From a virus: a stretch of DNA of 51,655 bases. A program made the translations under genes and the position numbers. Numbering within the stretch: the first letter of the stretch is position 1; each line of letters begins with the position of its first letter. Positions 11,263 to 51,655 of the stretch are shown piece after piece. The DNA is taken from IMG/VR virus record IMGVR_UViG_3300042557_000873, positions 1-51,655 of that record. One strand, written 5' to 3'. A model generated the notes under the pieces. It saw only the letters and a program-made list of their open reading frames with translations, ran no database searches and was not told where the DNA came from.

Positions 11263-11870
11263 TGAGTAAAGAATTAGATAACATTAACGAGGAAGAAATT
11301 AATATGTTAATGAAACTACTTGATGAAATTGAAGTAGATGAATCCGAAGATATTGATTACAATGCGATTATGGATTCTTTTGGAATTGACATTGAGGAAT
11401 TAGAAAAGGAAATGGAAGAGTACGTCCCTAAAATTGAAATGGGGGTTGTAAAATCAAATGAAGATACGGTTTTTCCATCGTATAATTATGAATCTGATTC
11501 AGGATTTGATTTGTATTCAATTGAGGAATGTTGGATACACGCATTTGATAGAAAATTAATTAACACTGGTTTGATCCTTGACATTCCTGAAGGATATGAA
11601 ATACAGGTAAGATCTAAAAGTGGTTTAGCCCTTAAACAAGGTCTTATGGTTTTAAACTCTCCAGGCACAGTAGATCAAGGATATTTAGGTGAAATCCAAG
11701 TTATACTTTTCAACACTACAAATCAAAAGGTAAAAATTGAAAAGGGTCAAAAAATTGCACAAGCGGTTCTTTGTCCTGTTGTATCAGGAAAATGGGTTGA
11801 GTTTGTGGAAAAAAATAAATTAGAAAATAAAGATAGAAACGATAACGGTTTCGGATCAACAGGGGTATGA
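11262..11870 (+). CDS. dut: dUTPase (deoxyuridine 5'-triphosphate nucleotidohydrolase) with acidic N-terminal extension
   Basis: This 202-residue protein hydrolyses dUTP to dUMP and pyrophosphate, keeping uracil out of phage DNA and supplying the dTMP precursor. All five trimeric-dUTPase motifs are present: DSGFDLY (79-85), RSKSG (117-121), GTVDQGYLGE (135-144, with the sugar-stacking Tyr141), KGQKIAQAVL (161-170) and NDNGFGSTGV (193-202). The usual length is about 145 residues. The first 58 residues here are an extra, very acidic helical extension (about 20 Asp/Glu) of unknown role. Motif 3 lacks the common Arg (YLGE in place of YRGE). It overlaps both neighbours by one to four bases. Confidence 0.95.
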   Translation: MSKELDNINEEEINMLMKLLDEIEVDESEDIDYNAIMDSFGIDIEELEKEMEEYVPKIEMGVVKSNEDTVFPSYNYESDSGFDLYSIEECWIHAFDRKLINTGLILDIPEGYEIQVRSKSGLALKQGLMVLNSPGTVDQGYLGEIQVILFNTTNQKVKIEKGQKIAQAVLCPVVSGKWVEFVEKNKLENKDRNDNGFGSTGV

Positions 11871-13369
11871 TTACAATAGTTTATTCAACACATAAAGACG
11901 AAAACTATAATAACAAATTTAAACAACACTTATTACAAACTGTTGGTTTAAAAGATGTTCAAATTTTAGAGTTTGTAAATCACAATCAATATTCTCTTTC
12001 ACAAGTTTATAATAGTGGTATTACACAATCTATTTATAATATTGTGGTTTGTTGTCATAATGATATTAAATTAGAGAAAAATTGGGGTAAAAAATTATTG
12101 GAAGATTTTTCAAATAATAATAGTTTTGGCATAATTGGAAAAGCGGGATCATGTTATTTTCCTGAAACAGGAGTTTATTGGGATAGGATGCATTATACAA
12201 TGGTAGGTCAAGTTTACCACCACCCTAAAGGTCAAAAAAAATGGTTAAATAAATATTCTTCAAAATTACCATTTTTAATTCCTGTTGTAACAATTGATGG
12301 TCTTTTTATTTCTTTTGATAAAAACAAAATTAAACACAAATTTGATGAAACAATTGGTAAATTTCACTTCTATGATCATTTGTTTTGTTTACCAAATTAT
12401 TTAGATGGTGTAAAAATTGGGGTCACCTCATCTTTTGAGATTATTCATGAATCCGTGGGTCAACCAAATAAAGAATTTTTTGATAGTAAAGAAAAATTTC
12501 TTGAGAAATGGGGAAGTAATCTACCATTAGATTTGAAGCCATCTGAAGTCTATGTTCCACAAATTAAAATTAAACCAATAAAAAATGTTGGTAAAGTAGC
12601 GGTTATAATCCCAACTAAGGGAAAAGTTGAAATCTTAAAAAAATGTGTTGATTCTTTTCATAAAAATTGTGATGAAAATCTATATGATATTTTTGTTGCC
12701 GATACAGGATCTTCGGAAGAAGAAAAAAAATGGGTCAAAGAAAATATTAGTAATATAAATTTAATAGAATATGATTACTACAATTTTGGTAAGATAAATA
12801 ATGATGTTGTTAAAAATCACATTACTAATGATTATGAGTTTTTGTTATTTTGTAATAATGATGTTGAGTTATTAAATAATATCATTTACGGAATGTTAAA
12901 AACTTTTAAAACAAAAACCAAAGTAGGTACTGTTGGTGCTAGACTGCACTACCCAAACAACACAGTTCAACACGACGGAATTTCAATAATAATGAAACAA
13001 ACCTCTAAGACTATAGTTGTTGATCATTTGACAAAAGAAACATATTATAAATTTATAACCGAAACTCAAGAAGTCGGAGGTAATACCGCAGCATTAATGA
13101 TGATCAGAAAAAAAATGTTTGATTCTTTAGGTGGTTTTAATGAGAAATTTACACATTGTTTTGAGGATGCATATTTAAATTTACAAATAATAAAAAATGG
13201 ATATCTTAATTATTGTTGTGGTGAGTGTGTTGCATATCATTACGAATCATTAACAAGAAATATTGATGAATCTAAAAAAGAATATATTGATGAATTTGAC
13301 CAAATAATGTCTCCATACATAAGGGAAAATTTTGATAAATTTAAAAAATACACTATAATATCAAATTAA
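11867..13369 (+). CDS. Two-domain GT-A glycosyltransferase (family 2-like)
   Basis: This 500-residue protein has two tandem GT-A-like domains. Residues 1 to about 225 (ITIVYSTHKDENYNNKF, then NIVVCCHNDIKLE) resemble an N-terminal GT2-like domain with an HND metal site. From about residue 242, KVAVIIPTKGKVEILKKCVDSF opens a classic GT2 domain with FCNNDVELL as its DxD equivalent, GGNTAALMMIRKKMFDSLGGFNE as the acceptor-side motif and FEDAYLNLQI as the catalytic-base region. This arrangement recalls rhamnosyltransferase-type GT2 enzymes. It could add two different sugars. It overlaps dUTPase by four bases and abuts another GT2 gene. Confidence 0.85.
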   Translation: MITIVYSTHKDENYNNKFKQHLLQTVGLKDVQILEFVNHNQYSLSQVYNSGITQSIYNIVVCCHNDIKLEKNWGKKLLEDFSNNNSFGIIGKAGSCYFPETGVYWDRMHYTMVGQVYHHPKGQKKWLNKYSSKLPFLIPVVTIDGLFISFDKNKIKHKFDETIGKFHFYDHLFCLPNYLDGVKIGVTSSFEIIHESVGQPNKEFFDSKEKFLEKWGSNLPLDLKPSEVYVPQIKIKPIKNVGKVAVIIPTKGKVEILKKCVDSFHKNCDENLYDIFVADTGSSEEEKKWVKENISNINLIEYDYYNFGKINNDVVKNHITNDYEFLLFCNNDVELLNNIIYGMLKTFKTKTKVGTVGARLHYPNNTVQHDGISIIMKQTSKTIVVDHLTKETYYKFITETQEVGGNTAALMMIRKKMFDSLGGFNEKFTHCFEDAYLNLQIIKNGYLNYCCGECVAYHYESLTRNIDESKKEYIDEFDQIMSPYIRENFDKFKKYTIISN

Positions 13370-13370
13370 T

Positions 13371-13931
13371 ATGGAATCAATTATAACTTTTATAATCCCG
13401 TCTTTAAATAGACCAACAATTTTGAGAACAGTAGATTCATTATTGAATCAAACTAATCCAAATTGGAAAGCAATTATACTTTATGATGGAGTTGACGGGA
13501 CTGAATTTAATAATGAAAAAATTAAAACTATCCGATTACCAAAAAAAGGATTGATGGGACCAAACAATGGTCAATCTGGTTTGGTAAGAAATGAAGGGAT
13601 TAAAATTGCAGACACCGAATGGATTGGATTTTTAGACGATGATGACACTATACATCCAAATTATGTACAAACACTTTCAGAGAAATATCAAAAAAATGAT
13701 TTTGTTGTTTGGAGAATGAAATATTTAAATGGGTTAGTTTTACCTGGCCTTACCGAAAACGACCTGAGATTCTCTAGGGTAGGTATATCTTTTTGTTTTA
13801 AAAGAAGTTTAGGTACAATTTTATTTGATGTGAATCGTGATGGTGAAGACTTTGATTTTTTAATGAAATTAAAAGGTTTAACGAATAATTGGGTCATAAC
13901 CCCTGAAATATATTATAATGTAAGACACTAA
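13371..13931 (+). CDS. Small GT2-like glycosyltransferase
   Basis: This 186-residue protein starts ESIITFIIPSLNRPTILRTVDSLLNQ, the standard GT2 N-terminus, and has FLDDDDTIHP at the metal-binding DxD position and EDFDFLMKLK in the catalytic-base region. It is shorter than typical GT2 enzymes (about 230-300 residues) but keeps all core motifs, so it is a minimal catalytic domain and not an obvious fragment. Donor and acceptor are unknown. It shares one base with the next gene. Confidence 0.85.
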   Translation: MESIITFIIPSLNRPTILRTVDSLLNQTNPNWKAIILYDGVDGTEFNNEKIKTIRLPKKGLMGPNNGQSGLVRNEGIKIADTEWIGFLDDDDTIHPNYVQTLSEKYQKNDFVVWRMKYLNGLVLPGLTENDLRFSRVGISFCFKRSLGTILFDVNRDGEDFDFLMKLKGLTNNWVITPEIYYNVRH

Positions 13932-14590
13932 TGAAAATACTAATCAAATTTCCAACTAGAGGTAGACAAGAAAAATTTTTTAAGGTTTTGGATATGTATT
14001 ATTCCTTTGCCAACAATTTAGATTTAATTGAATTTCAAATTTCTATAGATTCAGACGACCTTTCAATGAATAACGATGAAGTTATTCATAAATTCTCAAC
14101 ATACAAAAACTTAAAATACTCAATAGGTGAGAGTGTAAACAAAATACATGCCGTAAATAGGGATATAGTTGTTGGTGATTGGGACATAATATTGTTGGCA
14201 TCAGATGACATGATACCAAAAATAAAAGGTTATGATGACATTATTAGAACAAAAATGAGAGATATCTATCCTGATACTGATGGTATTCTATGGTTTCATG
14301 ATGGAAACCGAAAAGACCTTAACACTTTATGTATTTTAGGTAGAGAATATTATAAAAGATTCAACTACATATACCACCCTGATTATAAATCTTTATGGGC
14401 GGATAATGAATTTATGGTGGTTGGTAACATTTTGAAAAAACAGACATTCATCGATCAAGTAATTATTCACCACGAACATCCAGACTGGGGTTATGGTGGT
14501 GGAGATCAAATTCATAAATTAAACGTAAATAATAATAATCACGACATGGGAGTTTTTATGAGACGACAAAAAAATAATTTTGATTTATGA
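13931..14590 (+). CDS. GT-A-like glycosyltransferase
   Basis: This 219-residue protein begins MKILIKFPTRGRQEKFFKVL, a GT2-like start with an S/T-R-G-R loop. ILLASDDMIP at about residues 90-99 is the DxD-type metal site and HHEHPDWGYGGGDQ is a conserved C-terminal His/Asp cluster. Proteins of this form are common in phages with large glycosyltransferase clusters; their acceptors are unknown. It overlaps the following gene by four bases (ATGA), giving translational coupling. Confidence 0.75.
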   Translation: MKILIKFPTRGRQEKFFKVLDMYYSFANNLDLIEFQISIDSDDLSMNNDEVIHKFSTYKNLKYSIGESVNKIHAVNRDIVVGDWDIILLASDDMIPKIKGYDDIIRTKMRDIYPDTDGILWFHDGNRKDLNTLCILGREYYKRFNYIYHPDYKSLWADNEFMVVGNILKKQTFIDQVIIHHEHPDWGYGGGDQIHKLNVNNNNHDMGVFMRRQKNNFDL

Positions 14591-16000: not shown

Positions 16001-16720
16001 ATGAAAATTAGCTTAGTAATCCCATCAACACCAAATCACTTTCGTTATATAGATTGTATATTAAAAAATTACGAAAATGGAACTGAAAAACCTGATGAAG
16101 TAATTATATCCGTATCAGAAGGAAACAGAATTAATTCTCAACTTGTTGAAGAATTAAAATCTAAATATAGTAATTCTTTTGGTCGATTAGAATTTGTGTT
16201 AAACAACAGGCAAGTTATGGAGGGTCCTAACAGAGGTATTGGGTCTGAACATACCACATGTGAATATATAACTTATCACGATTCAGACGATATACCTCAT
16301 CCACAAAGAATAGAAATTATAAAACATTTTTTTAAAAATTACGACATACTACATTTGAATCATTCTTATAAATATGAAACGGGATTTGATGAAATAAAAA
16401 TTGAAGACATTAAAATTGCGGATTCAAAAAAATTGTATAGTGATCATTTTGGGGATGGGAATTATACTGAAAGACCTTTAAACTATTTTCCTGACCCAAA
16501 TAATAGAGCTTATGGTTGTTGTGTAGGTTTTTGGGTTTGTGGTGGACCAACAACGATTCATAGAAGTGTTTTGGATCATATTAAGTGGAATGAAAATAGA
16601 ATCCTATCATATGATTACGATTTTTGTATGGATGTATTATTTAAATTTAATAAATCTATGGCAATTGACTCAACGTTAATTTGGTATAATAAAACGGGTA
16701 ATGCTTCTTGGGCTTGTTAA
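16001..16720 (+). CDS. GT2-like glycosyltransferase
   Basis: This 239-residue protein starts MKISLVIPSTPNHFRYID. YHDSDDIPHPQRIE carries the D-x-D metal site. GCCVGFWVCGGPTTIHRSVLD is a typical GT2 acceptor segment and SYDYDFCMDVLFKF the likely catalytic-base region. It is a cytoplasmic, single-domain enzyme of normal length. The high similarity in architecture to its neighbours suggests that the cluster grew by duplication and capture of GT-A genes. Confidence 0.8.
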   Translation: MKISLVIPSTPNHFRYIDCILKNYENGTEKPDEVIISVSEGNRINSQLVEELKSKYSNSFGRLEFVLNNRQVMEGPNRGIGSEHTTCEYITYHDSDDIPHPQRIEIIKHFFKNYDILHLNHSYKYETGFDEIKIEDIKIADSKKLYSDHFGDGNYTERPLNYFPDPNNRAYGCCVGFWVCGGPTTIHRSVLDHIKWNENRILSYDYDFCMDVLFKFNKSMAIDSTLIWYNKTGNASWAC

Positions 16721-16731
16721 TTTTATAATTT

Positions 16732-17412
16732 ATGAAATATATTTACCACCATTTAGGTTTAGGTGACCATATAATATGTAACGGACTTGTAAGACATTTT
16801 TGTGATTTACATGATGGAATTTCTATATTTTGTAAAACAAACAATTATGAAAATGTATCATGTATGTTCAGAGATGACGATAGAATAAAAATAATACCGT
16901 TGAAAGATGATAACGAAGTTATTAATTATATAAATCGTAATAAACTACATAATGATTTAATAAAAGTTGGTTTTGATAGTCTTTGGATTGGTAATCCCAA
17001 AACATTTGATATTGGTTTTTATAATACTGCAAATATACCATTTGAGTACAGATTCACAAAGTTTAAGTTTGAAAGGGACTATGAATTAGAAAAACAAATC
17101 ATGAATGAGTTGAACCCAACAGGGGAGGATTATATATTTATTCACGACGACAAAACAAGGGGATTTTCAATTGACAGGAATAAAATTAGAAAAGATTTAA
17201 AAATAATTGAAAATGATGTTAAATATAATTTATTCCATATGTTAGGGATTATTGAGAATGCTAATGAAGTTCATATAATGCAATCATCATTCAAAGATTT
17301 TATCAACTCATTTAGACTTGATAAACCTTTATTCTATTATCATACTTATGTTAGGGATTACCCAGATAGTTACAACACAGAAGGACACAATAAATTTATA
17401 AAAATTAATTAA
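16732..17412 (+). CDS. GT-B/GT9-like putative glycosyltransferase
   Basis: This 226-residue protein starts MKYIYHHLGLGDHIICNGLVRHF, resembling the G-x-GD-x-I/L opening of heptosyltransferase-type (GT9) and related GT-B proteins. YIFIHDDKTRGFSIDR would be the inter-domain strand and IENANEVHIMQSSFKDF the C-terminal donor-site helix region. It is shorter than GT9 enzymes (about 330-350 residues), so the assignment is tentative. It is followed after three bases by a small helical protein. Confidence 0.55.
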   Translation: MKYIYHHLGLGDHIICNGLVRHFCDLHDGISIFCKTNNYENVSCMFRDDDRIKIIPLKDDNEVINYINRNKLHNDLIKVGFDSLWIGNPKTFDIGFYNTANIPFEYRFTKFKFERDYELEKQIMNELNPTGEDYIFIHDDKTRGFSIDRNKIRKDLKIIENDVKYNLFHMLGIIENANEVHIMQSSFKDFINSFRLDKPLFYYHTYVRDYPDSYNTEGHNKFIKIN

Positions 17413-17415
17413 ATA

Positions 17416-17763
17416 ATGATCGGAGAAAAAATAGAAGATTTGATTAAAAACAAGACACAAAAACTTTTAAACGAAGGTAAAAATGTCGAATTACCTGAAG
17501 ATATCATTGAGACAGATAATTTAGGTGAAGTGATTGAAAAATTATCAATTTTACATTGTAGAATGTGGTATTTAGAAGATGCTATTAGTGACGCAAAGTC
17601 TGATAATGAAATTGCGGAATTGAAAAGAAAAATAGATATTTGTTTTAAAATTAAAAGACCTAAATACGTCCAAGCAATTAATAGAATGGTTGAAAATTCT
17701 ATAGTGAATAATAAGTCTTTAGTTGAGGATTCTGTTAAATTATATAAAGGGGTAAATGAATAA
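17416..17763 (+). CDS. Small helical protein of the sugar cluster, unknown function
   Basis: This 115-residue, all-helical, charged protein has a central LGEVIEKLSILHCRMWYLEDAI segment. Similar short helical proteins with an E-K-L-S-I-L-like stretch occur beside sugar-nucleotide genes in bacterial clusters, but I cannot name a family with confidence. It overlaps the following epimerase-like gene by eight bases, which ties it to that step. Confidence 0.6.
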   Translation: MIGEKIEDLIKNKTQKLLNEGKNVELPEDIIETDNLGEVIEKLSILHCRMWYLEDAISDAKSDNEIAELKRKIDICFKIKRPKYVQAINRMVENSIVNNKSLVEDSVKLYKGVNE

Positions 17764-18541
17764 TTTAGTAATTGGGAATACTTCACAATTAAGTTATTAT
17801 TTCCCAAAAGATTACGAAAAGATTTCCTCAAGAAATTTAGATTTTAATAAAATAAAAGAAAAAAAATATAATAGGATATATCTTTTATTTGCGGAACAAA
17901 GAACATTCTTAAATGAAACTTTAGATTTTTTTAAAGAAGTTAATTTTAATTACACATTGAAAGTAATAGACGAGTTAAAAGACGTATGTAATAAAATTGT
18001 AATTTATTCTACTTCTGAATTGTGGAATAAATACGATGGCTGTGTGTCGGTAAATGATCCATATAATTATAACCCAACATCATATATCACATCTAAAGAA
18101 CATTTATGTAATCACATAAATAACAATCGAGAAAACTATAGTAATGTGATCATTATTTACCCATTTAATTTTAACTCAGTCCACAGAAAAGAGGGATTCT
18201 TGTTTGGTAAAATATTCAAATCAATTTTGAATGACGAAAAAATTTCAATTGGTAACGTAGATTTTGAAAGGGATTTAATTCACCCAAGTGTAATTGTGAA
18301 TGAATCAATAAAAACTAATGAGGACATATTAGTAGGGTCAGGTGAGTTATATAATGTAAAAAACTTTATTAAGGATATCTTTACACTATACAATAAAAAT
18401 TCAGATGAATATATTTTAACTGATAATAAGAACAATTTAAATAATAAACGAAATGGTTACTATAGTTGTAAAAAATATTCTAACTATAATGACCTATTAA
18501 ATCTTTCAATAAAAGACATATATGAGTATAAAGTTAGTTAA
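17756..18541 (+). CDS. Degenerate NAD-dependent epimerase/dehydratase-like protein
   Basis: This 261-residue protein looks like a shortened extended-SDR protein. The start NNLVIGNTSQLSYYFPKD stands where a Rossmann G-x-x-G-x-x-G loop is expected but keeps only part of it. VIYSTSELW corresponds to the S/T-x-E strand, and YNPTSYITSKEHLCNHI contains a Y-x-x-x-K. The C-terminal substrate-binding part is small. It may be a sugar-nucleotide epimerase or reductase with altered cofactor binding, or a non-catalytic partner. It overlaps the ColD-like gene by 20 bases, the first of four consecutive sugar-nucleotide genes. Confidence 0.6.
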   Translation: MNNLVIGNTSQLSYYFPKDYEKISSRNLDFNKIKEKKYNRIYLLFAEQRTFLNETLDFFKEVNFNYTLKVIDELKDVCNKIVIYSTSELWNKYDGCVSVNDPYNYNPTSYITSKEHLCNHINNNRENYSNVIIIYPFNFNSVHRKEGFLFGKIFKSILNDEKISIGNVDFERDLIHPSVIVNESIKTNEDILVGSGELYNVKNFIKDIFTLYNKNSDEYILTDNKNNLNNKRNGYYSCKKYSNYNDLLNLSIKDIYEYKVS

Positions 18542-19673
18542 AGACACCATTGATTTTGATGATGTATCATTATTAATTGAGTGGTTAAAAACAAACCCAA
18601 GATTAACAAAAGGAGATCTAACAATCGAATTTGAGAAGGCTTGGTCTAAGTGGTTAGGAGTTAAATATTCGGTATTTGTTAATTCAGGTTCTTCTGCAAA
18701 TTTAGCGGCAATATATTCTTTTATGTTGTCAAATAGAATGAGAAATAAAAAAATTGTGGTACCCGCCGTTTCTTGGGTTACTACCGTAACACCCGCAATA
18801 CAACTTGGTTTAGAACCAATAATGTGTGAATGTGATGTGGATAATTTAGGTTTAGATATAAATCATTTGAAAGAAATTATTAAAAAAGACGACCCATCTG
18901 CAATTATTTTAGTTCATGTTTTAGGGATTCCTAATAATATGGATGAAATTGTCGAACTATGTAATGAAAATAATATCTTGTTAGTTGAGGACACTTGTGA
19001 GTCTATTGGTTCAAAATATAACGATAAAATGGTTGGTACTTTTGGTAAGATGTCAACATTTTCTTTTTATTTTGGTCACCATATCTCAACTATAGAAGGT
19101 GGTATGATATCTACAAATGATGAAGAATTATACCATATTTTACTATCGGTTAGATCACATGGTTGGGATAGAGATTTACCAAAAGAAACTCAAATTAAAT
19201 TGAGGGAAAAATATAATATAAATAATTTTAGGGCCCTATATACGTTCTATTATCCAGGTTTCAATCTTAGATCAACAGACCTACAAGCATTTTTAGGATT
19301 GGGTCAGTTAAAAAAAATAGATCAAATTGTTGAAAACAGACATAAAAATTATTTGAAATATAAAAATGAAATAAAAAATGATTTTTGGAATGTTTCAGAA
19401 CCAAAAGGATCATACGTGTCAAATTTTTCATTCCCAATAATTACAAAAAATATTGATAAATTAATTAAAAAATTAAATGAAAATGATGTTGAGTGTAGAC
19501 CATTAATTTGTGGTTCAATTAATGAACATCCGTTTTGGTATGAAAGATATGGTAAACAAGAATTACCAAATTCAAAATTAGTACATGAGTACGGATTGTA
19601 TTTACCAAACAATCATCAAATGACAGATGAAGAATTGGATAAAGTTATAAAAATTGTAAACGAAAATATATGA
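18522..19673 (+). CDS. ColD/RfbH-type PLP-dependent sugar 3-dehydratase (GDP-4-keto-6-deoxymannose 3-dehydratase-like)
   Basis: This 383-residue protein belongs to the DegT/DnrJ/EryC1/StrS fold. It has VNSGSSANLAAIYS (53-66), VPAVSWVTTVTP (80-91) and LLVEDTCESIGS (153-164, the PLP ring-binding Asp region). The segment STFSFYFGHHISTIEGG (178-194) has His186 where aminotransferases carry the Schiff-base Lys. This His is the hallmark of the 3-dehydratases ColD and RfbH/E1, which remove the C3 hydroxyl instead of transaminating. The length equals ColD (about 388), and the HILLSVRSHGWDRDLP and NDVECRPLICG segments match it in type. RfbH also needs an iron-sulfur partner, but no Cys cluster is seen here. 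The adjacent Gmd would supply the ColD substrate. It overlaps Gmd by four bases. Confidence 0.88.
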   Translation: MSIKLVKDTIDFDDVSLLIEWLKTNPRLTKGDLTIEFEKAWSKWLGVKYSVFVNSGSSANLAAIYSFMLSNRMRNKKIVVPAVSWVTTVTPAIQLGLEPIMCECDVDNLGLDINHLKEIIKKDDPSAIILVHVLGIPNNMDEIVELCNENNILLVEDTCESIGSKYNDKMVGTFGKMSTFSFYFGHHISTIEGGMISTNDEELYHILLSVRSHGWDRDLPKETQIKLREKYNINNFRALYTFYYPGFNLRSTDLQAFLGLGQLKKIDQIVENRHKNYLKYKNEIKNDFWNVSEPKGSYVSNFSFPIITKNIDKLIKKLNENDVECRPLICGSINEHPFWYERYGKQELPNSKLVHEYGLYLPNNHQMTDEELDKVIKIVNENI

Positions 19674-20647
19674 AAAAAGCGTTGATAACAGGTATTAACG
19701 GTCAGGATGGTTCTTACTTGGCGGAACTTTTATTAGAAAAAGGTTATGAAGTTTGGGGAACAGTAAAAAGAAACTCCGTTTCTGAAACTCAATCATCAAG
19801 AATTGAAAATCTTAGAGATAGTAATTCAGTAAATCTTGAATATGCTGATTTGTCTGACATGGCTTCACTAGTTCGTGTTTTGAGTAAAGTACAACCTGAT
19901 GAGGTTTATAATTTAGCGGCACAATCTCACGTAAGAATTAGTTTTGACCAACCAATATACACGGCAAATGTTACAGGTGTTGGTACATTAAATTTATTAG
20001 AAGCGGTTAGGTTGGTTTCACCACATTCAAAAATATATCAAGCATCTTCTTCTGAAATGTTTGGTAATAGTATTGACAACGATGGTTATCAAAGAGAAAC
20101 AACACCAATGAATCCTGTGTCACCTTATGGGTGTGCAAAAGTATTTTCATATAATATTTGTAGAAATTATAGAAATTCTTATGGTATGAAAATATGGAAT
20201 GGTATTTTATTTAATCATGAATCACCTAGAAGAGGGACAAACTTTGTAACTAATAAAGTTGTAAAAGCGGCAGTAAGAATTAGTTTGGGATTACAAGATA
20301 AATTACATTTGGGGAATCTTGAAGCAACGAGAGATTGGGGTCATGCAAAAGATTACGTTGAAGCAATGTGGTTAATGTTACAAACTGATAAACCTGATGA
20401 TTATGTATGTGCCACTGGTATATCTCACTCTGTGAGGGATCTATGTAAATATACATTCTCAAAATTAGGTTTAGATTTTAACAACTATGTTATTGTTGAC
20501 GAAAAACATTTCAGACCTGAAGAGTTAGAAAATTTAAAAGGAGACTCAACTAAAATGAGAAAAGCTTTGTCTTGGGAACCTAAATACACATTTGAATCTA
20601 TGATAGATGAGATGGTTGAATATTGGTTAGATTATTATGGAAAATAA
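19670..20647 (+). CDS. gmd: GDP-mannose 4,6-dehydratase
   Basis: This 325-residue extended-SDR enzyme converts GDP-D-mannose to GDP-4-keto-6-deoxy-D-mannose using NADP. The GINGQDGSYLAELLLEKGYEVWG start is the characteristic Gmd Rossmann loop. The catalytic set is S127-S128-E129 (ASSSEMFG) with Y153 and K157 (SPYGCAKVFS). NLAAQSHVRISFD and GNLEATRDWGHAKDYVEAMW are Gmd signatures. The length is near the family norm (about 340-370). It sits between the ColD-like and Fcl/ColC-like genes, overlapping both (4 and 11 bases), so one pathway is indicated. Confidence 0.95.
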   Translation: MKKALITGINGQDGSYLAELLLEKGYEVWGTVKRNSVSETQSSRIENLRDSNSVNLEYADLSDMASLVRVLSKVQPDEVYNLAAQSHVRISFDQPIYTANVTGVGTLNLLEAVRLVSPHSKIYQASSSEMFGNSIDNDGYQRETTPMNPVSPYGCAKVFSYNICRNYRNSYGMKIWNGILFNHESPRRGTNFVTNKVVKAAVRISLGLQDKLHLGNLEATRDWGHAKDYVEAMWLMLQTDKPDDYVCATGISHSVRDLCKYTFSKLGLDFNNYVIVDEKHFRPEELENLKGDSTKMRKALSWEPKYTFESMIDEMVEYWLDYYGK

Positions 20648-21548
20648 AATATTAATAACAGGTGGATATGGTTTAGTTGGTTCTGAGTTTGTCGGTGAAC
20701 AATATTTCAAACCTACATCAAAAGAATATGATCTAAGAAAAACAGAAGACACTAATAGATTAATGGTTAAACATTTTGATGGTGTCATACATTGTGCAGG
20801 TAAAGTAGGTGGTGTTGGTGGTAATATGAATCACAAAGGTGAATTTTTTTACGATAATATAATGATGAATACGAATGTGATTGAGGGTGCTAGATTATCT
20901 AAAGTTAAAAATTTAGTGGCTTTTTTATCAACATGCGTGTTTCCTGATCAAGTTGATTATCCTCTAACTGAGAAAAAAATTCATTTAGGACCACCTCATT
21001 TCTCTAACGACGCTTATGCATATTCAAAAAGAATGACAGACATTCAAATCAGATCGTATAAAGAACAATACGGATTAAATTATAAATCTGTCATACCTTG
21101 TAACATTTATGGTCCAAACGATAACTACGATGTTGTTAATGGACACGTAATACCATCTCTTATACATAAATGTTATTTAGCAAGAGAAAATAAAACCCCA
21201 CTTAAAATATGGGGTTCTGGAAAACCATTGAGGGAGTTTATTTTTAGTAGAGATGTTGCAAAACTAACTGAATGGGTTTTACACAATTATAATGAAAATG
21301 AACCAATTATATTGTCAACTTCAGAGGAAGTACAAATTATGGATGTCGTAAGTATAATTGTTGAATTAATGAATTTTAAAGGTGAGGTAATATATGACTC
21401 ATCAAAACCTGACGGTCAATTTAGAAAACCGTCAGACAATTTCAAAATAAAACATTATTTACCTAATTTTGAATTTACCCCAATTTACGAAGGTTTGAAA
21501 GAAACTATACATTTTTTTGAGAGTAACTATAATAAAATTAGAAAATAA
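20637..21548 (+). CDS. GDP-L-fucose synthase / ColC-type epimerase-reductase
   Basis: This 303-residue extended-SDR enzyme has GGYGLVGSEFV as the NADP loop, CAGKVGGVGGN typical of GDP-fucose synthases, and the catalytic residues Ser98 and Cys100 (LSTCVFP), Tyr127 and Lys131 (YAYSK), and His170 (NGHVIPSL). GDP-fucose synthase and ColC are homologous C3/C5 or C5 epimerases with 4-keto reductase activity, and sequence motifs alone do not separate them. With Gmd only, the product would be GDP-L-fucose; with the ColD-like enzyme acting first it would be GDP-L-colitose. The gene starts inside the last codons of gmd. Confidence 0.9.
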   Translation: MENKILITGGYGLVGSEFVGEQYFKPTSKEYDLRKTEDTNRLMVKHFDGVIHCAGKVGGVGGNMNHKGEFFYDNIMMNTNVIEGARLSKVKNLVAFLSTCVFPDQVDYPLTEKKIHLGPPHFSNDAYAYSKRMTDIQIRSYKEQYGLNYKSVIPCNIYGPNDNYDVVNGHVIPSLIHKCYLARENKTPLKIWGSGKPLREFIFSRDVAKLTEWVLHNYNENEPIILSTSEEVQIMDVVSIIVELMNFKGEVIYDSSKPDGQFRKPSDNFKIKHYLPNFEFTPIYEGLKETIHFFESNYNKIRK

Positions 21549-21551
21549 TAT

Positions 21552-22547
21552 ATGATAAGAAACATACTAGTAACAGGTGGTTTGGGATATATTGGTAGCC
21601 ACACTGTTGTCCAATTAATAGAAAATAACTACAATGTTATAATTTTAGATAATTTGTCTAACTCAGATCTAACCATGTTAGATAAGATTGAGGTTATTAC
21701 CAATAAAAAACCAAAACTATATATCGGTGACATAAGGGATAAAAACTTACTTAATAAAATTTTGAGTGAGAATATAATAACTGACGTAATTCATTTTGCA
21801 GCATTAAAATCTGTATATGAATCAACAATTAAACCATTAGAATATTATGAAAATAATGTTGTTGGTACAATTACATTATTAGAAATGATGAAAAAGTTTA
21901 ACGTTAAAAATTTAATTTTTTCATCTTCTTGTACCGTGTATGGTGAACCTGATAACTATCCAGTAACCGAACATACACCAGTAAAAAAACCTAAAACAAC
22001 TTACGGACTAACTAAAAGTATTTGTGAAACAATAATAGAAGATATCACAGATATCAGATGTGTTTGCTTAAGATACTTTAACCCTATCGGTAATCATAAA
22101 ACAGGAATTATTTACGAAAAACCAAATGGTGTCCCTGAAAATTTAATGCCATACTTAATAGGTGTTATAAAAGGAGAATATGAATATTTGAGAGTCTTTG
22201 GTAACGACTACAATACAAAAGATGGTACTGCAATACGAGATTATATAGACGTTAATGATTTAGCAAATGCTCACGTAAAATCATTAAATGTTGTCAACGA
22301 TATAACACATGAAATAATCAATGTTGGTACTGGAAATGGGTATAGTGTTATGGAAATTATCAACACATTTAAAAATAAAGGTTATGATGTACCCTATAAA
22401 ATATATCCAAAAAGAACCGGAGATATAGAAAAAATATGGGCCGATATAAGTAAGTCCAAAAAGATCTTAAATTGGGAACCAAAAAATAACATTTCAAACA
22501 GTATAGATTCCATAATAAACTCAATAAACCTTGATGTTGACAAATAA
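21552..22547 (+). CDS. galE: UDP-glucose 4-epimerase
   Basis: This 331-residue extended-SDR enzyme interconverts UDP-glucose and UDP-galactose (possibly the N-acetyl forms). TGGLGYIGSHTVVQL is the NAD loop, HFAALKSVYESTIKPLEYY is a GalE signature, SSSCTVYG supplies the catalytic Ser and Tyr151-Lys155 (TTYGLTK) the Y-x-x-x-K. CLRYFNPIGNH and DGTAIRDYIDVNDLA are also typical. The length matches GalE (about 338). It is three bases from the fucose-synthase-type gene and is the last sugar-nucleotide gene before PhoH. Confidence 0.93.
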   Translation: MIRNILVTGGLGYIGSHTVVQLIENNYNVIILDNLSNSDLTMLDKIEVITNKKPKLYIGDIRDKNLLNKILSENIITDVIHFAALKSVYESTIKPLEYYENNVVGTITLLEMMKKFNVKNLIFSSSCTVYGEPDNYPVTEHTPVKKPKTTYGLTKSICETIIEDITDIRCVCLRYFNPIGNHKTGIIYEKPNGVPENLMPYLIGVIKGEYEYLRVFGNDYNTKDGTAIRDYIDVNDLANAHVKSLNVVNDITHEIINVGTGNGYSVMEIINTFKNKGYDVPYKIYPKRTGDIEKIWADISKSKKILNWEPKNNISNSIDSIINSINLDVDK

Positions 22548-22571: not shown

Positions 22572-23303
22572 ATGACAAGAAGAAAACCACAACCAACAGA
22601 GGAACCTTATGTACCTTTGAATTCTAAAAGAGATATAATCTCCCAAGTAGTTAAGAAAAAACAAAAAAGTAAATTTCTTACCGAAAATCAAAAAATATAT
22701 TACGAAACATTATTAAATAATCAAATTACAATCTGTTCAGGTCCTGCGGGTGTTGGTAAAAGTTTTATTGCCATGAAAACAGCGGTAGATCTTTTATTAG
22801 ATGATGGTAATGGATATGATAAAATCATAATTGTAAGACCAGCGGTTGAGGCAGAAGAAAAATTAGGAGCTTTACCTGGTAATTTAGAAGAAAAATTAGA
22901 TCCATATATTTTCCCATCTTACTATTTGTTAAATAAAATTATTGGTAAAGAGGCTAGAGAAAAATTAAAAGATGCAGAAGTAATTGAGGTTTTTGCTTTA
23001 GCATATATGAGAGGTATGACAATAGACAATTCAATTTTAATTTTTGAGGAAGCACAAAATGCAACACCAAAACAAATGAAATTACTATTGACAAGAATTG
23101 GTACCAACACTAAATTCTTTATCTCTGGCGACATTGAGCAAACCGATAGATATAAAGATAAAAAACACTCAGGTCTTTATGATGCGATAACAAGATTTAA
23201 TGGTATAAACGGAATTGGGATTTTTGAGTTTGGCGATAAAGATGGTGTAAGAAATCCAATAATTACTAAAATATTACAAAAATATGATGAAGATAGGGAT
23301 TGA
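22572..23303 (+). CDS. phoH: PhoH-like ATPase
   Basis: This 243-residue P-loop ATPase has Walker A GPAGVGKS (57-64), a VRPAVEAEEKLGALPGNLEEKLDPY motif typical of PhoH, Walker B ILIFEEAQN (155-163, with Glu where Asp is usual) and a sensor-type ISGDIEQTD. PhoH-like proteins are predicted RNA- or nucleotide-metabolism ATPases and are very common in myophages; their role in infection is not settled. It overlaps the next gene by 20 bases. Confidence 0.93.
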   Translation: MTRRKPQPTEEPYVPLNSKRDIISQVVKKKQKSKFLTENQKIYYETLLNNQITICSGPAGVGKSFIAMKTAVDLLLDDGNGYDKIIIVRPAVEAEEKLGALPGNLEEKLDPYIFPSYYLLNKIIGKEAREKLKDAEVIEVFALAYMRGMTIDNSILIFEEAQNATPKQMKLLLTRIGTNTKFFISGDIEQTDRYKDKKHSGLYDAITRFNGINGIGIFEFGDKDGVRNPIITKILQKYDEDRD

Positions 23304-49980: not shown

Positions 49981-51655
49981 TTATTTCACTTCCTCGAACT
50001 CTACATTTGCAAAGTCTTCTTCCGTTACTTCATCGTTGTTTGTTTGTTCATACAACTTTTGACTTATGTTTTGGAATTTTTTATTAACCTCTTCCATTAA
50101 AACTTTTACTTCAGAAATTTCTTTCTTGTCGTAAGCGGATTTTAATTTATTGATTGAATCGTTGATCTCAGTTTTTTCATCTTCGGTAATCTTACCTTCA
50201 AGATCCTCCATTGATTTACCAACTTGGAACATTAAAGAGTCCGCAGAATTTAATGTATCTACATCTTCTTTTAATTTTTTATCCGATTCAGCATTCATTT
50301 CAGCCTCTTGTTTCATTCTTTCAATCTCTTCTTTTGATAAACTTGAAGATGATTCAATTCGAATTGATTGTACTTTGTTAGTTGCTTTGTCAACCGCAGA
50401 AACATTAATAATACCATTAGCGTCGATATCAAAAGTCACCTCAATTTGTGGAGTTCCTCGTCTTGATGGTGGAATACCATCCAAGTTAAATTTACCGATG
50501 GTTCTGTTGTCTTTTGCCATTGCTCTTTCACCTTGTAGAACATGAATCTCCACTATAGGTTGATTATCAACCGCTGTTGAGAATGTTTCTGATTTTTTTG
50601 TTGGGATTGTTGTATTTGCACTGATCAATTTTGTAAACACACCACCCATAGTTTCAATACCTAATGAAAGTGGAGTTACGTCTAACAACAATACGTCTGT
50701 TACATCACCAGCTAAAACACCACCTTGAATTGCTGCACCTAAAGCAACTACCTCATCAGGATTTACCCCTTTTGAAGGTTCTTTACCGAAGAATTTTTTA
50801 ACCGCTTCTTGGATGGAAGGTATACGAGTAGATCCACCAACTAAGATAATCTCGTCAATCTCACCAACAGTAAGATTTGCGTTAGACATTGCTCTTTTAC
50901 AAGGTTCAATTGTTCTATCTACCAAAGATTGTGTTAATTGATCAAACTTAGATTTTGTAATAGTCATTACCAAGTGTTTTGGACCTGTGGAATCTGCAGT
51001 CACATACGGTAAGTTGATTTCAGTTTGAGGTGAAGAAGATAATTCAATTTTAGCTTTCTCAGCCGCCTCACGAAGTCTTTGAAGTGCCATAGGATCTTTA
51101 GAAATATCCATCCCATTTTCCTTTTTAAACTCAGAAATTAAATGATCAATTAACGCTTGGTCAAAGTCGTCACCACCTAAATGAGTATCTCCGTCAGTTG
51201 ACAATACTTCAAATACACCATCACCAAGTTCTAATACGGATACATCGTGTGTTCCACCACCACAGTCAAATACTACGATTTTCATGTCTTTAGACATTTT
51301 ATCAAGACCATAAGCTAATGCTGCTGCGGTTGGTTCATTGATAATTCTTTTTACGGTAAGTCCTGCAATTTCACCAGCTTCTTTTGTTGCTTGGCGTTGA
51401 GCGTCATTAAAATACGCCGGAACAGTAATAACCGCTTCGGTAACGGATTGACCCAAATAGTCTTCAGCGGTTTGTTTCATTTTTTGAAGAATTGCGGCTG
51501 AGAGTTCTTGTGGTGAATAAGTTCTATCATTAATTTGAACTTTTGGTGAGTTATTTTCTTTAACTACCTTGTAAGGGACCTTTGATGTTTCGTTTTTAAT
51601 TTCATCAAAAGAAGACCCCATAAATCTTTTAATTGAGTAAATTGTTTTGTCAGGG
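49981..51655 (-). CDS. dnaK: DnaK (Hsp70) chaperone, N-terminus cut by window edge
   Basis: About 557 residues are visible; the open frame continues past the edge ([16 protein letters not shown], the normal DnaK sequence at about residue 60). The ATPase domain shows [53 protein letters not shown] and [12 protein letters not shown]. The linker [18 protein letters not shown] leads into the substrate-binding domain, and the C-terminus ends in the acidic EEVK type. GGGTHDVS and the sequence around it look like Bacteroidota DnaK, so acquisition from a host is likely. An ATP-dependent foldase could help fold capsid or tail proteins. It ends at a terminator sharing its stem with that of the next unit, which argues that it belongs to the phage genome. 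Confidence 0.97.

What the first reader, a model, noticed from the sequence alone, without database searches (positions are those of the whole stretch)
18522..21548. Phage-encoded route to GDP-L-colitose: ColD-type dehydratase between other sugar genes, with Gmd and Fcl/ColC
The sequence shows three consecutive overlapping genes: a DegT-fold enzyme with His186 where the PLP Lys should be (FYFGHHISTIEGG), Gmd with its catalytic residues, and a GDP-fucose-synthase/ColC homologue with Ser98, Cys100, Tyr127, Lys131 and His170. Established knowledge: the Lys-to-His change marks ColD/RfbH 3-dehydratases, and Gmd, ColD and ColC convert GDP-mannose to GDP-L-colitose. Gmd and Fcl occur in some phages, but to my knowledge a dideoxysugar branch is rare there. 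Inference: the phage makes a 3,6-dideoxysugar to decorate itself or to alter the host surface.
Basis: partly seen in the sequence, partly recalled or inferred. Interest (0 to 1): 0.88.

Follow-up and report, generated by a model that had tools for sequence, protein, structure and literature searches.

The report
Phage dideoxy-sugar pathway with swappable reductase
This T4-like virus carries genes that look able to turn a common sugar into a rare 3,6-dideoxy sugar; the key enzyme is identified correctly, but such genes are common in viruses, and the last step may well be done by a neighbouring gene that was overlooked rather than by the one first proposed.

Summary
The three genes are real and correctly read. 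The first is a ColD-type 3-dehydratase: His186 replaces the Lys, the CxC pair of RfbH-like proteins is absent, E. coli ColD is its best solved relative, and the two group together in a careful tree (98/88.6). The second is Gmd. The third is a GDP-fucose-synthase homologue (FclA), but a clade with the characterised ColC is rejected (AU p 3e-53), so naming it ColC is unsupported. A fourth gene was missed: a short SDR (17756-18541) overlapping ColD by 20 nt, a remote Gmd relative with intact Thr/Tyr/Lys. In 35 related virus records this SDR and a second Fcl type (FclB) never co-occur; on a tree of 42 ColD rows they exchange at least 7 times. Four of the 35 hold SDR and ColD but no Fcl. Best reading: Gmd and ColD make GDP-4-keto-3,6-dideoxymannose, the SDR reduces it, FclA makes GDP-L-fucose. 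Colitose is neither shown nor excluded: in other lineages Fcl proteins sit beside ColD without the SDR, and the SDR also occurs without ColD. The module is not rare: at least 582 viral relatives, and cyanophages ACG-2014f and S-CAM7 carry Gmd-Fcl-ColD. The product needs chemistry.

The parts
17416..17763 (+). small DUF4254-like protein (115 aa); family often adjacent to the SDR or ColD in phages
   Evidence: Pfam PF14063 E 6.8e-4, 19.9 bits, below its cut-off of 27; adjacent to the SDR in 39 of 80 SDR loci
17756..18541 (+). short extended SDR (261 aa), Gmd-related, proposed reductase of the ColD product; overlaps ColD by 20 nt
   Evidence: Pfam GDP_Man_Dehyd E 3.6e-6; T86, Y110, K114 invariant in 23 rows; AF2 pLDDT 92.3, Foldseek best GDP-mannose 4,6-dehydratase; alternates with FclB
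18522..19673 (+). ColD-type 3-dehydratase, His186
19670..20647 (+). Gmd, GDP-mannose 4,6-dehydratase (325 aa)
   Evidence: TIGR01472 E 2.6e-124, 414.9 bits against a cut-off of 415; PDB 1n7g E 1.8e-101
20637..21548 (+). GDP-L-fucose-synthase homologue (FclA), not in the clade of E. coli ColC
21552..22547 (+). UDP-glucose 4-epimerase GalE
   Evidence: TIGR01179 366.8 bits, cut-off 262.3
16732..17412 (+). compact GT-B protein, GT9/heptosyltransferase-like, candidate transferase
   Evidence: AF2 pLDDT 95.5; Foldseek 3tov (GT9) E 2.9e-6; no Pfam hit
16001..16720 (+). GT2 glycosyltransferase
   Evidence: PF00535 E 1.2e-6
13931..14590 (+). glycosyltransferase of phrog_14945
   Evidence: E 3.2e-15
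11867..13369 (+). two-domain GT2-type glycosyltransferase
   Evidence: PF13712 and PF00535

Best explanation
A T4-like phage makes a GDP-3,6-dideoxyhexose from host GDP-mannose. Gmd makes GDP-4-keto-6-deoxy-D-mannose; the ColD-type enzyme (PMP, His186 as acid/base, glutamate to regenerate PMP, no Fe-S reductase) removes the C3 hydroxyl; the overlapping SDR (17756-18541) most likely reduces the C4 keto group. The Fcl homologue most likely makes GDP-L-fucose from the same Gmd product, so the phage supplies two deoxysugars to its glycosyltransferases. In sister phages FclB, an Fcl-type enzyme, stands in the SDR's slot and would give colitose. Shown: families, residues, gene order, exchange pattern. 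Inferred: every reaction, the stereochemistry and the acceptor (virion or host surface).
For: ColD: PF01041 E 4.2e-75; ColD best in PDB, 247.7 bits vs 163.4 for RfbH/E1 and 127.2 for perosamine synthase; His for Lys; no CxC pair; groups with E. coli ColD, 98/88.6. Partner: of 35 related records SDR in 20, FclB in 14, both in 0; FclA in 16, each with SDR; four with SDR and no Fcl. In a wider set of 37 SDR records, ten with SDR and ColD show no Fcl match, among them records of 162, 159 and 95 kb. At least 7 exchanges SDR/FclB on 42 ColD rows, 4 forced by starred branches. L039 vs L043: ColD 93%, Gmd 94% identical, other shared genes 61-88%, only the gene before ColD differs among the shared stretch. 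SDR abuts or overlaps ColD in 45 of 80 SDR loci; ColD within 1.2 kb downstream in 62 of 80. Clade of FclA with ColC rejected.
Against: The SDR is not bound to ColD: 18 of 80 SDR loci lack it next door; 10 of those 18 records have no ColD match and 4 only a weak one, and five of the 10 have a strong Fcl match (G040, G041, G042, G044, G045), so the SDR may act on another sugar. Nor is Fcl bound to the SDR: FclA-type genes lie next to or near ColD without SDR in phages L148, L158, L167, L179, L180, L182, L184, L185 and in 11 of 80 bacterial loci, and FclC-type genes in others; in more distant phages SDR and another Fcl co-occur (L136, L149, L218, L221). Fold comparison ties epimerases, dehydratases and reductases. 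The Cys/His/Tyr/Lys set is the same in ColC and GDP-fucose synthases, so FclA could act as ColC. Records are fragments and several of the 35 are near-copies.
Confidence: 0.42

Rival explanations
1. Colitose: Gmd, ColD, then the window's Fcl acting as ColC (5-epimerase/4-reductase); the SDR does something else.
For: Gene order ColD-Gmd-Fcl with overlaps; Cys100, His170, Tyr127, Lys131 invariant in 12 rows including E. coli ColC; cyanophages carry Gmd-Fcl-ColD; Fcl of the FclA or FclC kind beside ColD without SDR in other phages and in bacteria; GT11 genes in 11 of 17 FclB loci, the kind of transferase that E. coli O55 also has (annotated alpha-1,2-fucosyltransferase; that this is GT11 is recalled).
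Against: FclA not in the ColC clade (AU p 3e-53); among 35 near relatives FclA occurs only with the SDR (16 of 16); records with SDR and ColD but no Fcl; no GT10/GT11 among 15 proteins scanned around the module in the window.
Confidence: 0.33
2. SDR and Fcl work in tandem on the ColD product (one epimerises, one reduces), or the SDR makes a GDP-rhamnose-type sugar alongside.
For: SDR fold close to GDP-4-keto-6-deoxymannose reductases 2pk3 and 6x3b; FclA with SDR in 16 of 16 near relatives; SDR with Fcl and no ColD in five records.
Against: Records with SDR and ColD but no Fcl; FclB alone in the SDR's slot in an otherwise conserved locus.
Confidence: 0.13
3. The DegT protein is an aminotransferase, an RfbH-type CDP-hexose enzyme, or inactive.
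For: A tree with RfbH-like rows nearer than E. coli ColD is not firmly rejected (AU p 0.064); PHROGs calls its family aminotransferase.
Against: His186, no CxC pair, RfbH model NF011936 at 233.7 bits vs cut-off 423, Gmd next to it.
Confidence: 0.07

Closest known systems
E. coli O55 ColD/ColC/Gmd genes (NC_013941)
   Same: Gmd, His-type DegT 3-dehydratase, Fcl-family protein; ColD and ColC overlap
   Different: window ColD 35% identical; window Fcl outside the ColC clade; extra SDR; no ManC/ManB family named among the 25 window proteins scanned with Pfam
Cyanophages ACG-2014f and S-CAM7: Gmd-Fcl-ColD
   Same: same three families, FYFGHHMTT(I/V)EGG, contiguous genes, glycosyltransferases next door
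   Different: no SDR hit in the stretch read; Fcl on the WcaG side of the tree; annotated aminotransferase, hypothetical protein or CDP-4-keto-6-deoxy-D-glucose-3-dehydrase
Phage GDP-sugar genes in print (gmd, fcl, rmd, gme)
   Same: phage-encoded enzymes of the GDP-mannose branch (passages of PMC9602691, PMC12911398, PMC10436341)
   Different: no 3-dehydratase or colitose named in the passages seen
GDP-4-keto-6-deoxymannose reductase 2pk3 (for the SDR)
   Same: model aligns over its whole length, Z 23.9, rmsd 2.8, 257 residues, 18% identity
   Different: ties with dehydratases and epimerases; 261 vs 309 residues; no NCBIfam hit at 1e-3

Membership tests
ColD (GDP-4-keto-6-deoxymannose 3-dehydratase) | DegT/aspartate-aminotransferase-fold family | tested here: met
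   PF01041 E 4.2e-75
ColD (GDP-4-keto-6-deoxymannose 3-dehydratase) | His instead of the PLP Lys | tested here: met
   His186 aligned with the ColD His; 178 His and 13 Lys among 191 rows collected here
ColD (GDP-4-keto-6-deoxymannose 3-dehydratase) | no [2Fe-2S] cysteines (stated in a passage of PMC8987622) | tested here: met
   window has Leu and Lys where two of three RfbH-like rows have a CxC pair
ColD (GDP-4-keto-6-deoxymannose 3-dehydratase) | groups with characterised ColD, apart from RfbH-like and Lys-type | tested here: met
   98/88.6 in a careful tree of 47 chosen rows; the alternative is not firmly rejected, p 0.064
ColD (GDP-4-keto-6-deoxymannose 3-dehydratase) | 3-dehydratase activity on GDP-4-keto-6-deoxymannose | not testable with these tools
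   needs enzyme assay
RfbH/E1 | NF011936 cut-off and Fe-S cysteines | tested here: not met
   233.7 of 423 bits
Gmd | TIGR01472 curated cut-off | tested here: inconclusive
   414.9 vs 415 bits; E129, Y153, K157 present
ColC (GDP-colitose synthase) | same clade as E. coli O55 ColC | tested here: not met
   ten FclA rows with ColC held together: AU p 3.08e-53
ColC (GDP-colitose synthase) | Cys, Tyr, Lys, His active-site set | tested here: met
   C100, Y127, K131, H170 invariant in 12 rows; S98 is Ser or Thr; shared with GDP-fucose synthase, so not diagnostic
GDP-L-fucose synthase | NF047922 curated cut-off | tested here: not met
   210.7 of 500 bits, although the best PDB rows are GDP-L-fucose synthases
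GDP-4-keto-6-deoxymannose reductase (for the SDR) | family model or distinctive fold match | tested here: inconclusive
   0 NCBIfam families at 1e-3; fold comparable to many SDRs

The most novel reading that the evidence does not exclude
A phage cassette switch sets the handedness of a dideoxysugar: with FclB the ColD product becomes GDP-L-colitose, with the SDR a GDP-linked D-sugar (3,6-dideoxy-D-mannose, i.e. GDP-D-tyvelose, or its C4 epimer), whereas tyvelose is known, as far as I recall, only from the CDP route. The SDR family was seen only in viruses in the samples searched.
Probability: 0.25. Interest if true: 0.75.

Novelty: new variant of a known kind. Interest (0 to 1): 0.5.

Why it matters
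It corrects a pathway assignment made by proximity and residues (ColC) and names a testable partner for a 3-dehydratase that is common in viruses but often annotated as an aminotransferase. If the SDR and FclB give different sugars, phages change the chemistry of a surface glycan by exchanging one gene, which would bear on receptor masking and host recognition in aquatic viruses.

Tried and rejected
Considered and dropped: perosamine synthase (Lys absent), RfbH (no CxC pair, model below cut-off), ColC by residues (same set in both Fcl kinds). Fold search of the SDR did not separate reductase from epimerase or dehydratase. GT10/GT11 as a marker of L-sugars was ambiguous: GT11 in 11 of 17 FclB and 8 of 24 SDR loci, GT10 in 0 and 8 (loci chosen by me). 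Whether the SDR exists in bacteria: 0 of 398 and 0 of 296 genomes drawn from two phyla at E 1e-15, with 5 of 5 virus records found as positive control; 0 of the 80 genome loci; other phyla not searched; in five bacterial genomes weak hits of about 30 bits in 2. Literature: searches listed no title or abstract start on phage-encoded colitose or a phage GDP-3-dehydratase; only open-licence PMC papers are held and listings were cut at 12 to 25 rows. Papers seen as passages only: PMC8987622, PMC8204192, PMC10665884, PMC9602691, PMC10452541, PMC5513705, PMC10436341, PMC12911398. The active-site regular expression failed; one search used the alignment column. In one search I chose the rows and set two labels by hand (L031 FclB, L019 SDR). 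Searches took 35 of the 45 loci. The 62 of 80 counts any ColD-model hit over 100 bits, including an RfbH-like one (L258) and short pieces (L257, L230). On rechecking the calls I added Fcl beside ColD without SDR, and SDR beside other Fcl kinds, as evidence against; for that I lowered the best explanation from 0.45 to 0.42 and the novel case from 0.27 to 0.25, and raised the colitose rival from 0.30 to 0.33.
Full report
Observation. The three genes exist as described and overlap. Gmd keeps Glu129, Tyr153 and Lys157; where the human enzyme has a catalytic Thr (recalled) the window has Ser127, as has the plant enzyme in the alignment.

What the DegT protein is. Pfam: DegT_DnrJ_EryC1. Against solved structures the top four sequences are ColD and its variants (247.7 bits for the first), then RfbH/E1 (163.4), then perosamine synthase (127.2). 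His186 stands in the Lys column; across 191 relatives collected here the column is His in 178 and Lys in 13. Two of three RfbH-like rows have a CxC pair where window and E. coli ColD have Leu and Lys; one of them, L004:15562-16860, has RfbH/E1 as best PDB hit. In a careful tree of 47 chosen rows the His-type proteins and E. coli ColD lie on one side, 98/88.6, against RfbH-like and Lys-type rows; a tree with RfbH nearer than E. coli ColD is not firmly rejected (p 0.064). His catalysis and the missing Fe-S cluster of ColD are from passages of PMC8987622.

The Fcl homologue. Its best solved relatives are human (292 bits) and Naegleria (274) GDP-fucose synthases; the E. coli enzyme scores 153. FclB scores 208 and 141 against the human and E. 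coli enzymes. In a tree of 96 Fcl-like proteins window type FclA and FclB share one side, E. coli ColC and WcaG the other; a clade of ten FclA rows with ColC is rejected. FclB sits on a stem of 0.84, which may mark a change of substrate (inference). The Cys/Tyr/Lys/His set is invariant in all 12 rows compared and cannot tell the two functions apart.

The fourth gene. The SDR is related to Gmd (phmmer E 3.8e-6; 25% identity to the window Gmd in a global alignment). In 23 rows T86, Y110, K114, E47-Q48-R49-T50, W90, R144 and H176 are invariant, so it looks active; at E88, the place of Gmd's Glu, rows have Glu, Asp or Met, which fits a reductase better than a 4,6-dehydratase (reading, inference). 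The model has pLDDT 92.3 and pTM 0.90; Foldseek ranks GDP-mannose dehydratases first and a GDP-4-keto-6-deoxymannose reductase 25th; by Z-score these tie with UDP-sugar epimerases.

Exchange pattern. In 35 of the 45 related IMG/VR loci, searched as whole records, the SDR is found in 20, FclA in 16, FclB in 14; SDR and FclB never together, FclA only with the SDR (in one record just the SDR end at the contig edge); four have the SDR and no Fcl, one has neither. On a tree of 42 ColD proteins (26 SDR-linked, 16 FclB-linked) at least 7 changes are needed, 4 forced by starred branches; none of 500 shuffles was as low (mean 13.1), so the label is also clustered. Clearest case: L039 and L043, with ColD 93% and Gmd 94% identical and the other shared genes 61-88%, differ in the gene before ColD, SDR in one, FclB in the other. 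In a wider set, ten records with SDR and ColD show no Fcl match, up to 162 kb, and L139, L140, L142, L143, L144, L151 and L154 have SDR and ColD with no Gmd or Fcl hit in the stretch held, up to 6 kb each side.

Results against. 18 of 80 SDR loci lack ColD as neighbour; of those 18 records 10 have no ColD match, 4 a weak one, 4 a strong one elsewhere. Five of the 10 have a strong Fcl match. Outside the near relatives, FclA-side genes lie near ColD without the SDR in eight phage loci (L148, L158, L167, L179, L180, L182, L184, L185) and 11 of 80 bacterial loci, and FclC-side genes in further ones; there an Fcl may well be the partner of ColD. SDR and another Fcl kind co-occur in L136, L149, L218 and L221. 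So SDR and ColD are linked, not obligate partners.

Abundance and precedent. In 50,697 phage records 83 match ColD at 1e-5 and 2 the SDR; one of these, LR756501, has the SDR without ColD within 4 kb. ACG-2014f and S-CAM7 carry Gmd, an Fcl and ColD side by side. Phage GDP-sugar genes are in print (passages); no listing or passage seen named a phage 3-dehydratase or colitose.

Context. The window is a virus record of 51,655 bases with T4-like capsid, portal, head-protease and terminase genes. GC is 28.8% in the module and 31.9% in the window. Around the module are several glycosyltransferases and a compact GT9-like protein; the acceptor is unknown. No GT10 or GT11 was found in the 15 window proteins scanned, while such genes lie near ColD in many relatives.

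Verdict. ColD and Gmd: strong. GDP-L-colitose: possible, not favoured for this window. Most likely a GDP-3,6-dideoxyhexose finished by the SDR, with GDP-fucose from the Fcl.

Noticed in passing
49981-51621 (-): HSP70/DnaK-like protein of 546 aa in a T4-like phage (Pfam HSP70 E 4.8e-221; phrog_22485 of unknown function).
   Followed up: no
17416-17763 (+): DUF4254-like 115-aa protein recurs next to SDR and ColD in phages, sometimes between them; role unknown.
   Followed up: partly
16732-17412 (+): 226-aa GT9-like protein; family in 24 viral and 0 bacterial loci of the sets.
   Followed up: partly
L004 15562-16860: A 642-kb uncultured phage record carries an RfbH/E1-like 3-dehydratase beside its ColD-like one.
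   Followed up: partly
L039 8120-9175, L043 4208-5275: Gene of the UDP-glucose/GDP-mannose dehydrogenase family next to Gmd in these relatives.
   Followed up: no
22572-23303 (+): PhoH-like gene directly after the sugar module, at the same place in many relatives.
   Followed up: no
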